Origin: a bacterium
GTDB lineage: Bacteria > Muiribacteriota > UBA9980
Assembly (NCBI GenBank): GCA_029571125.1
Contig: JAKPTH010000542.1
Location: 1 to 35,519, forward strand
Direction: 5' to 3'
Length of the DNA stretch: 35,519 nt
Each line of letters opens with the position of its first letter. The stretch's first letter is position 1. This document shows, piece by piece, positions 3,871 through 19,771 of this stretch. Below the pieces are notes generated by a model. It saw nothing but the letters and a program-made list of their open reading frames with translations. It made no database searches and was not told where the DNA came from. The position numbers and the translations under genes were made by a program.

Positions 3871-6800
3871 CGCCAAACGCGCGCGTGATCATCTTAGAAA
3901 GTTTTTCGGTCTCGAGCTTCGGCCATTCAAAACCGGCCCGCCGCAGGATCGTTTCGGTTTTATCCGACAGCACGCTGAAGTACGCCTCCTTTTTATCGGA
4001 GTCGTCGAGCCAGCCCATGTGCGTCATGATCTGGCCTATATAATCAGCCATACCCTTTTTATCGTAGTTGTCGTATAAATGTTCTATGAATTTTTTAAGT
4101 TCCAGCCGCTCCACGTTAAGTTCCAGCGCCTCGTCGGTCAGAAGCTCTGAAAGTTTGACGGTTTCGGGATTCCATATGTGAAAAATCTCGTTATCGAGTC
4201 CGGCGCGGCCGAACAGCAGGCATATGGCCCGCGAAAGATGATTCACGAACGAAAATTCAGCTTCGTCGAGAGCTTCAGGCACCGCGCCTATATTTAAATA
4301 AGATTTTATCTGGTTATAAAAAGCGTTGTCTTCGATATTTTCCTGGTAAAGCCCCGAGTCGGAGTTGAACACTATATTTCCGACCCTGTATATGCTGGCG
4401 TTCAACCCGGCGTTTCTGGCGTTTATGACTTCCTTCTCGGCGAGAAATTTAGTTTTGAGATAATAGTTATCGTGCTTCTGGCCGAAGTCCGTATCGTACT
4501 CGGTAAACACGGCAAATTCACGGTCGTCTAAAGTTCCGGATGCGACGGATACGGTGGATATATAGCTGAAATCTTTCTTTTTTGAGGCGGAAGCGAATTT
4601 CAACAGATTCGCGGTCGAAACTACGTTGCCGCTGAAAAATTCTTCATAGTGGCCGTAATGCTTGACTATGGCGGCTGAATGTATTACGGCGTCCACGCTT
4701 TCGGAAAGCGCGGCGTATTCTTCTATTGAAAGCCCCAGATTTTCCGCCGACAGATCGCCCCTGTAAATTTTCACTTTTTCGAATTCAGCGCTGTTTATGA
4801 CGTCGCCGCCGAAATAATATTCGAGCTTGGCACGCACTCTGGCGGCCGCGTCGTCATTATCTTTTCCCCTTACGATAAGCGTGAGCCCGCAGTCCATACT
4901 GAAAATTATTTCGCGTAAAAGATGAACGCCGAGAAAGCCGGTGCCGCCCGTCAAAAGGATATTTTTGTAATTTTTGCCCTTCGAAAAATCCATTGCTTCA
5001 TATTTTTTATTCTTAAGGCTGTATTCCCTGGAAATCCTCTCATATTCACTTATGAATTCGGGGCTTTCGGAAATATCGCCGCCTTCGCCGCTTTCTTCCA
5101 TGATAGCGGCCAGCTTCAGCTTCAGACCGTCCTGCCTGGGCTTGATATTTTTGGCGAGTTCTACCAGTACCTGATATTCGAATATTTCATTTATAGAAAC
5201 GTCGAAGTGCCTGGAAAGTTTAGAAACGGCCGCTATGGCCTTTATAGAATTTCCGCCGGCAAGGAAGAAATTGTCCGTGACGCCGATCTTTTCGAGCCCC
5301 AGCACTTCCTTCCATACCTTCGCTATCTTTATCTCGTTCGGCGTAGAAGGCTCTATATATTCGGATTCCGCGCTCTTGATTTCCGGAGACGGAAGCGCCT
5401 TCTTATCTATCTTGCCGTTCGGCGTCAGCGGCATTTGATCCAGCCGAGTAAAATAAGAAGGAACCATATATTCAGGAAGCTGTTTAGCTATAAGCTTTTT
5501 AACGGATTCAACGTCGAAGTTTTCAGCGCCGCTCACTATATAAGCCGAAAGATACCTGTTGCCCGAAGCATCGGCCAGATCTATTACAACGGCGTCTTTT
5601 ACATTTTCAACCTTGAGTATCTGCTGCTCTATCTCGCCAAGCTCTATGCGGTAACCCCTTATTTTAACCTGCTGATCGATTCTTCCAAGAAATTCTATAT
5701 CCCCGCAGGTAGTCCATTTAACCAGATCTCCCGTTTTATAAAGCATCGAATTTAGACCGCATGTTTTAAACGGGTTCTCTATAAACTTCTCGGCCGTAAG
5801 CTCGGGCCTGTTCAAATAGCCGCGCGCCATCTGCGCGCCCGATATGCACAGCTCGCCGGGCACGCCTATAGGAACGGGATTGCCGTTTCTATCCAGAACA
5901 TAAAGCCATGTATTAGCCAGGGGCTTGCCTATCGGAATATTGTCGTATAATTTATCCACCACGAACGCCGTGGCCGAAATAGTGTATTCCGTCGGGCCGT
6001 ATTCGTTTACCAGCCTGAATTTTGAAGGCTTATAAGTCCTGAGCTTGTCGCCGCCGGTAACCAGCGTCTTAAGCGAGCGGTTTTCGGCGCTTTCCATGAA
6101 CTGCTCGCAGAACTGCGTGGGAAGGTTGGTTATGGTTATGTTGTTTTCGTTGAAGTAATCGTTCAGTTTTTCCGGAGACAGCCTCAACTCGTCCGCTATT
6201 ATGTGAAGCGCAGCGCCGCACGTTATAAACGGCGTCATCTCCCATATTGAGGCGTCGAAGCTGAACCCCGAATAGGCCGCCGCGTTATCGGCGAATGTCA
6301 CGCCGTGGAACTTGTTATGCCATTTGCACAGGTTGACCAGGTTTCTGTGCTCTATCATGACGCCTTTCGGTTTTCCGGTCGAACCGGACGTATATATGAC
6401 GTAAAGCAGGTCGCTCGATTTATTCACGTTTTCAAGCTCGGCCGGGCTTTCGCTAATATAATCGCGAGCGTCGAGGTCTATCCATTCGCCCTTGAACCCG
6501 TCAACTCTTCCCCTCAGCGCAGAATGCCCCAGAAGCGCTATGGCGCCGCTGTCTTCCAGCATATACATTATCCTGTCGTCGGGGTATGACGGGTCTATCG
6601 GAAGGTAGGCCCCGCCGGCTTTTATTATCCCGAGCATCGATATTATTATGTCCTCCGAGCGGTTTATCAGTATCGCGCTCACCGAGCCGGGCTTTATTCC
6701 TTTCTTGCGAAGACGCGCCGCCAGACGGTTGGTTATCTCGTCAAGCTCGCGGTACGTATATTTTTTATCCCTGAAAACCAGCGCCGTTTTCTGAGGATAG

Positions 6801-9800
6801 CCCGCGGCAGCCTCTTTGAACAGATCCTGTATCGTGGCGTCAAAAGGCACCTCCAGCGCGGTATCGTTAAATTCGACGAGAATCTTATTCTTTTCGCTTT
6901 CAGGCAATAAATCGTATTCGTCCACAGGCTTATTCGCGTCGCGAATAACTTCGTCCACGAGTTTTTCAAAATGCGCTGAAATCAGCTCTACGAAAGCGGC
7001 TTCGTAAACGTCGGCGTTATAATTGAACCGGACCGCTATCTCCTTCGCCGGCGCCATAACGACGCTGAAATCGTAACTCACCTGGTCGAATCCCGATTCT
7101 TCGCGCAGCGAAAAGCCTTCGGGCAGCTCCAGTGATTTATCCGAAAAAGTTTGAAGCGTAAGGAATGTATCGATTAGCTCCGAACGCAGGCTCGACTGCG
7201 ATTGTATTTCGGCGAGAGGAAGATATGAATGCTTGTCGGACATAAGGGCGTTTTGCTGTACCGCTTTTAAAAGTTCTTCAAAAGTTATTTTATCATTGGC
7301 GCTTATGCGCACCGGTATGGTATTTATAAAAAGCCCTATCATTTCATCTATTCCAGCCACGTTCGCGCCGCGCCCGGACACCACCACGCCGAAAACAGCG
7401 TCGTTACTGTTGTTATATCTCATCAGCATAATGCCCCACATCACCTGCAGCACTATGCCGAGCGTAACGTTATTTTTCCTGGCTATCGCCTGCAGTTGCA
7501 AAACCTTTTCTTCCGGAACCACTATATTCCGGTCGGCGAAATTCGGCCGGTCCGCGCTTTTTTTCAACCGTTTTTTATTGGGCACGACGGTCGGCGCGTC
7601 AAGGCCGGCAAGGTAGCCGCGCCAGTACCGCCTGGATTCGTCTTTATCGGCGGCTTCGAGCCATTGAATGAAATCAGAGTAGGGCCTGCTTTCGAACTCT
7701 TCGATTTTTTTTCCGGACTTGATAAAGCAATAATCCGCGAATAAAGACTTTTCTATTATTCCCATGCTCCATCCGTCCACGATTATATGCATGAAACTGA
7801 CTATGACGGCGCTTCGCTTATCCGATAATTTCAATACGGCCGCCCTTACAAGCGGCGCTTTAGAAAGGTCGAACCCGCGCTTCCTTTCCTCTTCGGCCGC
7901 GCGTTCGATCTCCAGTTTTTGCTCTTCGGGCGAAAGGCCGCGTATGTCGTAAAAAGCGATCGGCGTTTCAACTTTTTTTAAAACGACCTGCCTGATGCGC
8001 TCGAGCCCGTCGATCACAAAGCCGGTCCTGAAAACATCATATTTTGAAATCATTCTTGAAAAATTACCGGCGAAAAGCGCGTCATCCATTTCGCCTGTGA
8101 ATTCATAATTGCTCTGCTCGAAATACGCTGCCGAATCTTTCCCGGCCGACATATTTAAAAATATCATGCCTTCCTGCATCGGGGCCAGAGGATATATTTT
8201 TTCAATATTATCGCCGTAAACGGATCTTATCAGATTGAACTCTTCCAGAGTAAGAGCGGAATCCGCTATATCCGAGGGCGTATATTCGCGATCGCGCCCG
8301 GCGCAATGATCCGCGATGTTTTTAAGCGCGGCGGCATAGCAGCCTGCAAGTTTTGCTGCCGTTTCGCCTTTATACTGGAATTTATTGTAGCCTATTGAAA
8401 TATTAAGGGCGCCGTTATTTATTATAGTAGTTATGAACAGCTTAAAGTCGAGGGCTTCGTCGGGGCCGGAATCCTCTCCTGCGTGAATATCTGCTAAATT
8501 AAAAAAGCCGCCGCTTTCAACGTCATTACCGATCCCTATTTCGCCGAAATGATTGAATTCGATCTCGGGCCTTAATTTTTCGGGCCAATCGCCTTTCAGT
8601 TCCGGCGGCGTGAGCTCGTGGATTATTTCATACGCGACCCCGCGCTCGGGAATATGGCGCATATATTCCTTGTTGATCTTGATAATATCGGCTAACTCGC
8701 CCGATTCGGCCGAGAGGACCACGGGATATGTCGAGGTAAACCAGCCCACCGTTCGCGTTATATCGGCGCCTATAACTTCCTCGCGGCCGTGGCCTTCCAT
8801 CGTGACCGCCGTTTTTTTGACAGAACCGCCGCTCCATTCTTTAATAGCTAAAACAAGCCCCGACAGCAGGACTTCATTTACATTCAGCCCGTACGCTTTG
8901 CGGCAGCCTTCAAGCAGGGCGGACGTCGCCGGCGCGTCGACGGAAATTTCTTCCCTGATAAGATCGGCGTAAACCGAGCTTTCAGGATCGCTCACGTCGG
9001 CCGGCAGAGGGTCTATCCTCGTGCCGTCAACTTTTTTCCAGTATGGAAACTCTTTCGAAACGGCACTGCTTTTTGCATACTGAGAAAGCTTTTCGGCCCA
9101 TTGCATAAACGGCGCCGTTCTTTCGGGCAGCTCCGGCTTATTCCCCGCCGCTATAGCTTTATAAGCGGTTTCGAGGTCCTCTACGATTATATTCCATGAA
9201 ACGCCGTCAACTACCAGATGATGTACGATAAGCGCTACATAATCGCCGACGCCGTTTGCGGGATCGCCTTTAAAAAGGCCGGCCTGCAAAAGCGGCCCTT
9301 CGCTCAAGTTTATGCCTTCCTGCAGCCGCGACGCCTTACGGTGTATTTCTTCGACCGCTTTATCGTTATCGCCGGCTTCCAGATTGAATATAATTAAATT
9401 AAAAAGCGGGCCTTCGTCTATTTTACGGTTGTACTGCCTTATATTATTTTCATTGAATCCGTAAACCATCCTTAAAGCGTCGTGATGCCTTGCGAGCGCG
9501 GCGAGCGCTTCTTTTAAAAACTCCTCATTTACGGGCTTCGCCGCTTTGAGCAGATTCGAATGGTTCCAGTGGCTGGGATTTTTTAATTTTTGCGAAAAAA
9601 ACCAGCGCTGAATGGGCGTAAGCATGACTTCGCCATAAACCGGGCCGGCCGCGGCCGTTTCTTCTATCCGCTCGAGCTGCGGGGCGAGCTGCGCGACCGT
9701 CGGGGTCGCAAAAAGTTTTCTGGTCTCGAGCTTGAAATTAAATTTTTTAAGGCGCGCGCCGGCCTGAATGGATTTTATAGAATCGCCGCCGAGGCTGAAG

Positions 9801-17442: not shown

Positions 17443-17471
17443 TTGACTTGCATGCCCACGGCTGATATAAT
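17443..17471 (+). promoter_or_regulatory. Strong sigma70-like promoter (TTGACT - 17 nt - TATAAT, TGn extended -10)
   Basis: TTGACT at 17443-17448, TGaTATAAT ending 17471, spacer exactly 17 nt. Confidence 0.75.
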
Positions 17472-17525
17472 TCTATTAAAACGCCGTTAGCTTTAAAGAT
17501 AACCGGCCGCATATTTATATTTCTT

Positions 17526-17640
17526 CGACCCCGACGTTCTAAAGCGCCGCATCGCCATGAACCAGGGGCGGCCTGGAATGATTTTCAGGCGAGGGCCTCA
17601 CCGGAAACGGTTTGCGCCTCCCGTGTTCGGAAAGGAGAAA
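17526..17640 (+). ncRNA. Molybdenum/tungsten cofactor (Moco/Tuco) riboswitch-like leader
   Basis: CCCCGACG...CGCCATGAACCAGGGGCGGCCTGGAATGATTTTCAGGCGAGGGCCTCACCGGAAACGGTTTGCGCCTCCCGTGTTCGGAAAGGAG. Hairpins: GCCTGGAA..TTCAGGC (17571-17590), ACCG-GAAA-CGGT (17600-17611), CTCC..GGAG (17618-17637). It lies between a promoter and a terminator, upstream of a tupA-like gene. Confidence 0.7.
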
Positions 17641-17651
17641 AACGCGCGACC

Positions 17652-17681
17652 CCGTCCGTATTTTCTCCGGACGGTTTTTTT
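17652..17681 (+). terminator. Intrinsic terminator, possible expression platform of the riboswitch
   Basis: CCGTCCG-tattttctc-CGGACGG followed by TTTTTTT. Confidence 0.85.
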
Positions 17682-17741: not shown

Positions 17742-18857
17742 TTGAAAAAAATTATTATTTTAACGTTTTGCGCGATTATAATCGCGCTTTCGACGGCCGG
17801 CGACGGTATCGTCGAAACCTTCTACGGCGGAGGCTCCGCCTTTATAATTAAAGGCGCAGTTAAAAAAGAAACGGCCGTCAGCTACGGTAAAATTTCAAAA
17901 CTGCGCTCGTCCGTCAAGCGCGTTAAAATTTATAACGAAAAAAACGAATACGCCTGCAGCCTTGAAATGGATGGAGTAAGCCTTCAGGACGTTCTGGAAC
18001 TCGCGCGGCCAGAGAAAAAAAGGAACGACGGTTTCGACCGCGATCTCGATATGTACGTGGTCGTGCGCGGCAAAAATGGAAAATCTGCCTTATTTTCATA
18101 CGGCGAAATAATTTCGGCTAAAGATATGAACTCGATAACCATAACCAAAAGCGCTAAACATATATTCCCGCACAAACACTCTGATCTGAGCCAGGCCGGC
18201 TTCGATATGAATAAATGGACGACAGCGTCAGGCGCGGCTAAGCTCGATTTAAAAAACTGCGCGTCGTGCCATGACGGAAAAGATCAGAAACCCGTATACT
18301 TCCCCGAAGGCTTCTGCCTCTTCGCCGCATGCGACGCTTCCAGCGCCCGTTTCGTTGAAAACATAGCCGAAATCGAAGTATGCCAGGCGCCCAAAATGAC
18401 ACTTACGCCTGAAAAAGATAAGGAAAACATGTGGCACGAAAAACCGGCGCTGATTTTTTCCGGTAAAAATACCGTTGAAATAACTATCGACGGCGTTAAA
18501 AACCTCACTAAATTCAGCCATACCGAAAATACCGTGGGCATGGGCAAAGGGTTCCACGGAAAGATCGCTTACGGAGGTTATGACATGGCGCAAATCATCA
18601 AAAACAACCTGCAGGACAAAACCGAAACACCAAAAATGTACGTTCTCGTAACCGCCGCGGACGGCTACAGAAGCCTGTTTTCGGCCGGCGAAATATTCGA
18701 TTCCCTTTACGGGCCCAACCTGTTTCTGGCCGATACCGAAAACGAAAAAGAGCTCCAGAAAAGCGGCGGCAAATTCAGGATTTTTATAAAAAGCGATTTT
18801 TTCGTCGACCGCTCGATACGCTCGGTGAAAGAAATATCCTGCGAATATTATAAATAA
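17742..18857 (+). CDS. Exported protein with two molybdopterin-binding (sulfite-oxidase-like) domain repeats and a central CxxCH motif
   Basis: Signal peptide (MKKIIILTFCAIIIALSTAG). Repeat 1 MYVVVRGKNGKSALFSYGEI, repeat 2 MYVLVTAADGYRSLFSAGEI. CASCH motif at 18258-18272 between them. Confidence 0.6.
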   Translation: MKKIIILTFCAIIIALSTAGDGIVETFYGGGSAFIIKGAVKKETAVSYGKISKLRSSVKRVKIYNEKNEYACSLEMDGVSLQDVLELARPEKKRNDGFDRDLDMYVVVRGKNGKSALFSYGEIISAKDMNSITITKSAKHIFPHKHSDLSQAGFDMNKWTTASGAAKLDLKNCASCHDGKDQKPVYFPEGFCLFAACDASSARFVENIAEIEVCQAPKMTLTPEKDKENMWHEKPALIFSGKNTVEITIDGVKNLTKFSHTENTVGMGKGFHGKIAYGGYDMAQIIKNNLQDKTETPKMYVLVTAADGYRSLFSAGEIFDSLYGPNLFLADTENEKELQKSGGKFRIFIKSDFFVDRSIRSVKEISCEYYK

Positions 18858-18910: not shown

Positions 18911-19771
18911 ATGAAAAAGTTCAACCCCGTCAACCGTTTAATTTTAATCATGGCAGCTCTGGCTTTTATTTTCAATTTCAGCTGCGCTTTCGCGCAGGAC
19001 GCCCTCCAAAAAGACTCTACCGGCGAAACCATTATCCTCGCCACCACCTACAGCGTTTTCGACACCGGCCTGCTGGACGTTATTTTAAAAGATTTTACGG
19101 CAAAAACCTCTATAAGCGTCAAACCAATAGTGGTCGGATCCGGCGAATCCCTTAAAATGGGCGAACGCGGCGAATGCGATATAATACTGGCTCACTCGCC
19201 CGCGCTCGAAGAAAAATTCATCGCCGACGGCTTCGGCAAAGACAGAAAATCATTCGCTAAAAACGAATTTTACATAGTCGGGCCCGAAAACGATCCGGCT
19301 AAAATAAAAGACTCGAAAGACGTTTTCGAAGCGTTCGCCAGACTCGACAGCACAGGCGTTTTTATATCGCGCGGCGATAAATCTGGCACGCATACCCGTG
19401 AAATGTCGATATGGAAAAGAACCGGCGCCGACAAAAAAGCCGGCGCAAATTACATGGTAACCGGCCAGGGCATGGCCGAAACCCTCAAAATCGCCGACGA
19501 AAAAGCCGCCTATACCCTCTGCGACTCGGCCACTTACACTTTTATGAGCGAAAAACTTAAAATTAAAAGCATTTACGCCGACGCTAAAAATTTATCCAAC
19601 GTTTACAGCGTAATCACCGTAAATCCAGATAAAACAAAACACGCCAAATACCAGCCGGCTAAAAAATTATACGATTTCATTCTTTCACCCGAAGTTTTAA
19701 AAACCGTATATGAATTCGGTGCGGATAAATTTAAAAAACCGCTTTTTGAAAAATACGAAGAACATAATTGA
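18911..19771 (+). CDS. tupA: Tungstate/molybdate ABC transporter substrate-binding protein, TupA-like
   Basis: Signal peptide; ILATTYSVFDTGLLDVILKDFTAKTSISVKPIVVGSGESLKMGERGECDIILAHSPALEEKFIADGFG...IVGPENDPAKI...FISRGDKSGTHTREMSIWK. Confidence 0.85.
   Translation: MKKFNPVNRLILIMAALAFIFNFSCAFAQDALQKDSTGETIILATTYSVFDTGLLDVILKDFTAKTSISVKPIVVGSGESLKMGERGECDIILAHSPALEEKFIADGFGKDRKSFAKNEFYIVGPENDPAKIKDSKDVFEAFARLDSTGVFISRGDKSGTHTREMSIWKRTGADKKAGANYMVTGQGMAETLKIADEKAAYTLCDSATYTFMSEKLKIKSIYADAKNLSNVYSVITVNPDKTKHAKYQPAKKLYDFILSPEVLKTVYEFGADKFKKPLFEKYEEHN

What the first reader, a model, noticed from the sequence alone, without database searches (positions are those of the whole stretch)
17443..17681. 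Moco/Tuco riboswitch-like leader complete with extended -10 promoter and terminator
Seen: TTGACT-N17-TATAAT with TGn, then a ~115-nt structured segment containing GCCTGGAATGATTTTCAGGC, a perfect ACCG-GAAA-CGGT tetraloop hairpin and GCCTCCCGTGTTCGGAAAGGAG, then an intrinsic terminator (CCGTCCG..CGGACGG-T7). Established: Moco RNA motifs (Regulski et al. 2008) sit upstream of Mo/W transport, Moco synthesis and Moco enzyme genes, and some variants are proposed to sense the tungsten cofactor. The downstream tupA-like gene makes a Tuco-responsive attenuator plausible.
Basis: partly seen in the sequence, partly recalled or inferred. Interest (0 to 1): 0.75.

Follow-up and report, generated by a model that had tools for sequence, protein, structure and literature searches.

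The report
Moco-class riboswitch before tungstate-uptake gene
A genuine molybdenum/tungsten-cofactor riboswitch precedes a tungstate-binding protein gene in an uncultured bacterium and is built to end transcription when cofactor is plentiful; the mechanism is ordinary, but the genes it controls break a published rule for telling molybdenum sensors from tungsten sensors.

Summary
Window 17511-17653 (+) matches Rfam RF01055 (Moco RNA motif) full length, 63.3 bits against a cut-off of 36. It lies between an extended -10 promoter (17443-17471) and an intrinsic terminator (17652-17681). I add the switch itself: the P1 3' strand (GGAGAAAA, 17634-17641) is perfectly complementary to the terminator loop and stem base (UUUUCUCC, 17661-17668). 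Aptamer and antiterminator therefore exclude each other, giving an OFF switch. The own genome has a second copy before a bona fide P5C dehydrogenase. Four species of the genus carry six copies in all; 36 other genomes of the phylum have none. In one relative a single riboswitch heads P5C dehydrogenase, an exported heme-c-like protein and TupA; in the window's species and another the operon is split and each half has its own riboswitch. All six aptamers have P3, with compensatory changes. By the 2008 criterion P3 marks Moco sensors never linked to tungstate transport, so tupA is an exception to that rule as published. The genomes encode both tungsten (AOR-family) and molybdenum (xanthine-oxidase-family) enzymes, so the ligand (Tuco, Moco or both) stays open. 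New member of a known class with an unusual regulon.

The parts
17443..17471 (+). sigma-70-type extended -10 promoter TTGACT-N17-TATAAT
   Evidence: 11/12 consensus, TG before the -10; similar sequence before the relatives' copies
17511..17653 (+). Moco RNA aptamer (RF01055), with P1-P5
   Evidence: 63.3 bits, cut-off 36, E 4e-13, model 1-135; conserved in six copies in four species, covariation
17521..17526 (+). P1 5' strand UUCUUC
   Evidence: invariant in six copies; pairs with 17634-17639 in 100% of cells
17571..17590 (+). P3 hairpin GCCUGGAA..UUUCAGGC (the element said to mark Moco rather than Tuco sensors)
   Evidence: helix 5: four pairs with changes on both sides
17600..17611 (+). P4 tip with GAAA tetraloop ACCG-GAAA-CGGU
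   Evidence: GGAAAC invariant
17634..17641 (+). switching strand GGAGAAAA: 3' strand of P1 and 5' strand of the antiterminator
17661..17668 (+). antiterminator 3' strand UUUUCUCC, inside the terminator loop and first base of its 3' arm
   Evidence: perfect 8-bp complement of 17634-17641
17652..17681 (+). intrinsic terminator CCGUCCG-UAUUUUCUC-CGGACGG-U7
   Evidence: hairpin -10.6 kcal/mol; helix 9 is 100% paired with compensatory change
17742..18857 (+). first regulated gene: exported protein with weak PF00174 (SUOX-type Mo-binding) similarity and a conserved CxxCH motif
   Evidence: same gene follows P5C dehydrogenase behind the riboswitch in L011 and G037
18911..19771 (+). second regulated gene: TupA-like tungstate-binding protein
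   Evidence: 3lr1 Geobacter TupA E 4e-60; NF041772 183 bits, below its 400 cut-off; pocket residues H, R, T and D kept, TTTS changed to TTYS

Best explanation
The leader is a Moco-class (RF01055) riboswitch working as a transcriptional OFF switch for a small Mo/W-supply operon. When molybdopterin-metal cofactor is scarce, GGAGAAAA (17634-17641) leaves P1 and pairs with UUUUCUCC (17661-17668). This holds the terminator open and RNA polymerase reads into the CxxCH protein and tupA. When cofactor is abundant, ligand binding locks P1 (UUCUUC:GGAGAA), the terminator at 17652-17681 forms and tungstate-binding protein is no longer made. The same aptamer controls the genome's only group-1 P5C dehydrogenase. 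My inference is that this NAD-dependent aldehyde dehydrogenase stands in for tungsten aldehyde oxidoreductases when cofactor is lacking, as metE stands in for metH under B12 riboswitches. Shown: aptamer family, P3, terminator, complementarity, gene order and conservation. Inferred: ligand binding, direction of switching, and identity of the metal in the ligand.
For: RF01055 hit far above threshold; six copies in all four held genomes of the genus and none in the other 36 of the phylum. Aptamer plus terminator structure: 92% of cells paired against 36-51% when slid, and 10 pairs with changes on both sides against 3.1 in shuffles. Antiterminator: 8/8 complement in the window (0.06% of shuffles) and 7-7.5 of 8 in three others; in G037/G039 GGAG to GAAG is matched by C to U in the partner strand, and the helix extends to 11 bp in a shifted register. 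The window RNA is nearly bistable: antiterminator -61.0, P1 plus terminator -59.7 kcal/mol. Riboswitch, P5C dehydrogenase, CxxCH protein and TupA form one operon in L011; where it is split (G000, G038) each half has its own riboswitch. TupA-like protein is close to structurally solved tungstate-binding TupA. Both W (AOR, 3-5 per genome) and Mo (XO family, 3-4) enzymes are present.
Against: No ligand data. Only six related sequences, so antiterminator covariation is slight (one pair with changes on both sides; 103 of 500 shuffles reach the score), and complementarity in G037/G039 alone is weak (3% and 9% of shuffles). In five of six copies the terminator state is more stable by 4-14 kcal/mol, so antitermination would have to be kinetic. 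TupA scores below its equivalog cut-off and has TTYS for TTTS. TupB and TupC are encoded elsewhere without a riboswitch, so only the binding protein would be controlled.
Confidence: 0.78

Rival explanations
1. The aptamer senses Moco only, as its P3 stem predicts, and represses Mo/W uptake generally; TupA-like protein here serves molybdate, or cross-regulation is tolerated.
For: P3 is present and covaries in all six copies; published P3-bearing RNAs go only with MPT/Moco genes (PMC2408646); XO-family molybdoenzymes and a MocA-like gene exist; D. alaskensis TupA also binds molybdate at nM Kd (PMC5517513).
Against: A separate Mod/Wtp-type transporter exists without RF01055, while the riboswitch sits on the tungstate-type binding protein; no convincing DMSO-reductase-family enzyme was found; 3-5 AOR-family genes per genome.
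Confidence: 0.35
2. The aptamer senses Tuco (or both metals' cofactors), so P3 is not a specificity mark in this lineage.
For: tupA is a target in three species and the operon split kept a riboswitch on tupA; several AOR genes per genome; lineage-wide departures from the Rfam consensus near P3 (an inserted base between P2 and P3, and G/A for C in J3/4).
Against: No ligand data; P3 criterion points the other way; the core is otherwise conserved with E. coli moaA.
Confidence: 0.45
3. The leader is a degenerate, ligand-blind attenuator that sets a constant low level of tupA.
For: In five of six copies terminator states are clearly more stable; P2 has mismatches relative to the model and bit scores (60-75) are lower than E. 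coli moaA (103.6).
Against: Compensatory changes in P2, P3, P4 and the terminator and invariant core nucleotides over 61-99% identity show selection on the folded aptamer.
Confidence: 0.07
4. The switch is an ON switch: cofactor promotes read-through.
For: P5C dehydrogenase is not an obvious uptake gene that cofactor should shut off.
Against: The P1 3' strand is the antiterminator strand, so stabilising P1 must free the terminator; known Moco RNA in E. coli represses (PMC2408646).
Confidence: 0.04

Closest known systems
Moco RNA motif / molybdenum cofactor riboswitch, RF01055 (Regulski et al. 2008, PMC2408646), P3-containing type, e.g. E. coli moaA leader
   Same: P1-P5, GAAA tetraloop on P4, invariant GCCUCCCGU-UU-GGAAAG core, P3 present
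   Different: Terminator/antiterminator instead of a translational platform; controls tupA and P5C dehydrogenase, not moa; one base inserted between P2 and P3; G/A instead of C in J3/4; weaker P2
P3-lacking 'Tuco' variants of the same motif (Regulski et al. 2008)
   Same: Context of tungstate transport; some are followed by intrinsic terminators (Syntrophomonas wolfei array)
   Different: P3 is present here and covaries
TupABC tungstate ABC transporter
   Same: TupA binding residues H, R, T and D conserved with solved TupA; TupBC-like pair encoded elsewhere
   Different: TTTS motif is TTYS; tupA is separated from tupBC and under a riboswitch

Membership tests
RF01055 Moco RNA motif | Covariance-model score above the curated cut-off, full length | tested here: met
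   63.3 bits against 36, model 1-135; relatives 59.6-75.2
RF01055 Moco RNA motif | GNRA tetraloop on P4 with receptor-like bulge in P2 | tested here: met
   GGAAAC and CUAAAGC..AUG invariant in all six; docking itself not tested
RF01055 Moco RNA motif | Expression platform downstream (terminator or RBS sequestration) | tested here: met
   Terminator 17652-17681 and antiterminator
RF01055 Moco RNA motif | Upstream of Mo/W transport, cofactor synthesis or cofactor enzyme genes | tested here: met
   tupA-like gene; the P5C dehydrogenase copy is outside this set
RF01055 Moco RNA motif | Cofactor-dependent gene control | not testable with these tools
   needs reporter strains
Proposed Tuco subtype (P3 lacking) | Absence of P3 | tested here: not met
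   P3 present in all six, four compensatory pairs
Proposed Tuco subtype (P3 lacking) | Association with tungsten transport or tungsten enzymes | tested here: met
   tupA in the operon; AOR genes in each genome
Proposed Moco subtype (P3 bearing) | Exclusive association with MPT/Moco genes | tested here: not met
   tupA and P5C dehydrogenase instead; moaA of the genus lies elsewhere with no RF01055 hit
TupA (NF041772 equivalog) | Score above the equivalog cut-off of 400 bits | tested here: not met
   183 bits; call it TupA-like

The most novel reading that the evidence does not exclude
P3-bearing Moco-class aptamers in this lineage sense the tungsten cofactor, so P3 does not decide Mo against W. 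They also run a metE-like swap: when tungsten cofactor is short, they switch on an NAD-dependent semialdehyde dehydrogenase in place of tungsten aldehyde oxidoreductases, together with tungstate uptake.
Probability: 0.25. Interest if true: 0.7.

Novelty: new member of a known kind. Interest (0 to 1): 0.42.

Why it matters
Whether P3 distinguishes molybdenum from tungsten cofactor sensors was proposed in 2008 from gene context; the papers found here report no direct test of it beyond a P3 deletion that abolished regulation in E. coli. This genus gives clean natural test RNAs: P3-bearing, terminator-coupled, on a tungstate-binding protein gene, in genomes with both kinds of enzyme. The P5C dehydrogenase target extends the class to an enzyme that needs neither metal and suggests isozyme replacement.

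Tried and rejected
I first took the genus for a tungsten-only organism, because no DMSO-reductase-family enzyme was found. A search for xanthine-oxidase-family proteins rejected that. A whole-collection DNA pattern scan found nothing, and the TupA scan of the genome collection returned only two same-genus records, so the P3/tupA association could not be counted across other phyla. AlphaFold2 on the CxxCH protein with three sequences failed (mean pLDDT 34), so no fold search was made. A first alignment with a wrong stretch for G039 was replaced.

Full report
What is there. The leader in front of window gene 17742-18857 begins with an extended -10 promoter (17443-17471). It continues with a full-length match to Rfam RF01055, the Moco RNA motif, at 17511-17653 (63.3 bits, cut-off 36, E 4e-13), the only Rfam hit in the window. 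It ends in an intrinsic terminator at 17652-17681. E. coli moaA, run as a positive control, scores 103.6 bits with the same model and the same core.

Conservation. The window's own genome (4.87 Mb, 725 contigs) has two RF01055 copies. All three other held genomes of the genus have one or two, and the 36 other genomes of the phylum have none. Two of these relatives match the public records bacterium ADurb.Bin243 and bacterium UBP16_UBA6123. On the six aligned copies the aptamer plus terminator keeps 92% of pair cells, against 36-51% when partners are slid. Ten pairs show changes on both sides, against 3.1 expected from shuffles. P3 alone has four such pairs (GCCUG/CAGGC to GUUCU/AGAAC in G039), so P3 is a real, selected helix.

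How it switches. The P1 3' strand GGAGAAAA (17634-17641) is the exact complement of UUUUCUCC (17661-17668), which is the terminator loop plus the first base of its 3' arm. The 5' arm of the terminator lies inside the loop closed by this antiterminator, and no linker remains between the antiterminator 3' strand and the terminator 3' arm. The two cannot coexist (my reading of the geometry). The complement is reached in 0.06% of shuffles for the window and 0.5-1% for three other copies; for G037 and G039 it is 3% and 9%. In those two species the P1 strand is GAAG and the partner strand has changed C to U at the matching position. Their antiterminator also extends in a shifted register to GAAAAAACGCG:CGUGUUUUUUC in G037, 11 contiguous pairs, with an 11-pair helix in G039 too. 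The window RNA is almost balanced (-61.0 antiterminator, -59.7 P1 plus terminator), whereas the others favour the terminator by 4-14 kcal/mol. Since ligand is expected to stabilise P1 in this class, the predicted sign is OFF with cofactor. This is inference from anatomy; nothing was measured.

What it controls. The operon in the window is a 371-aa exported protein with weak PF00174 similarity (22.0 bits, cut-off 24) and a conserved CxxCH motif, followed by a TupA-like protein. The TupA-like protein matches the solved TupA of Geobacter (3lr1, E 4e-60). It keeps the pocket His, Arg, Thr and Asp named for D. alaskensis TupA (PMC5517513) but has TTYS in place of TTTS in all three species. It scores 183 bits against the 400-bit TupA equivalog cut-off, hence 'TupA-like'. 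The second copy in the same genome directly precedes a bona fide group-1 P5C dehydrogenase (TIGR01236, 788.6 bits, cut-off 613.6), the only one in the genome. In L011 (G039) a single riboswitch heads P5C dehydrogenase, the CxxCH protein and TupA as one operon. In G037 the CxxCH gene follows P5C dehydrogenase up to the contig end. In G000 and G038 the operon is in two pieces, each with its own riboswitch. Keeping a riboswitch on both pieces is good evidence that control of tupA is useful to the cell.

Which metal. Regulski et al. (PMC2408646) proposed that P3-bearing RNAs sense Moco, being exclusively linked to MPT/Moco genes, and that P3-lacking RNAs sense Tuco. Here P3 is present and the target is tupA, so one half of that rule fails. 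The genomes contain 3-5 AOR-family (tungsten) genes, 3-4 xanthine-oxidase-family (molybdenum) genes with a MocA-like gene, and no convincing DMSO-reductase-family gene. They also contain a Mod/Wtp-type transporter and an unlinked TupBC-like pair, neither with an RF01055 copy. moaA is elsewhere and not under RF01055. I put Tuco or both at about 0.45 and Moco alone at about 0.35. All six copies share two small departures from the consensus next to P3, an inserted base between P2 and P3 and G or A for C in J3/4. These are candidates for specificity changes, but untested.

Why P5C dehydrogenase. No proline dehydrogenase domain was found in any of the four genomes, so the enzyme is not an obvious part of proline breakdown. 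In Aromatoleum a tungsten AOR and an NAD-dependent aldehyde dehydrogenase do the same step, and the tungsten enzyme takes over when the dehydrogenase is deleted (PMC6365974). A switch that turns on the metal-free enzyme when cofactor is short would parallel B12 riboswitches on metE (own knowledge). This is a hypothesis.

Limits. The wider census that would tell whether P3-bearing copies next to tup genes are common today could not be run: collection scans were exhausted or gave no answer, and other taxa could not be chosen as a centre. All six sequences come from one genus.

Verdict. A true, complete Moco-class riboswitch of the transcription-terminating kind; ordinary in mechanism, unusual in its targets. 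New member of a known kind, interest 0.42.

Noticed in passing
window 17742-18857; L011:6182-7294; L053:1486-2598; L054:1492-2607: Exported protein family with PF00174-like stretches, an HKH motif and a conserved CxxCH (heme c-like) motif, found in this genus and two distant genomes of the phylum; function unknown.
   Followed up: partly
L003:4174-4311 and 4428-6059: Second RF01055 copy in the same genome, directly before a single-copy group-1 P5C dehydrogenase, in genomes with no proline dehydrogenase.
   Followed up: yes
window 17408-17380 (-): Back-to-back extended -10 promoter TGGACA-N17-TATAAT for the opposite MFS exporter (17337-15952) and a 4149-aa NRPS-like protein (15886-3437) that seems to end in reductase-like and cyclic-nucleotide-binding-like sequence.
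   Followed up: no
window 17482-17510; L009 upstream of 9078: A hairpin (GCCGUUA..UAACCGGC; in G038 GCCGUC..GACGGC) sits between promoter and aptamer in the tup copies but not, by eye, in the P5C dehydrogenase copies of the same genomes.
   Followed up: no
L009:7434-8006 and 8153-8902: The MFS exporter gene of G038 appears as two separate open frames where the window has one.
   Followed up: no
L027:5363-7261, L028, L029: TupB/TupC-like pair encoded far from tupA in three genomes of the genus, without a Moco riboswitch.
   Followed up: partly
window 18911-19771: TupA tungstate-pocket motif TTTS reads TTYS in all three species of the genus, while the TupA homologues read from other genomes of the phylum (L058, L060, L061, L066) keep TTTS.
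   Followed up: partly
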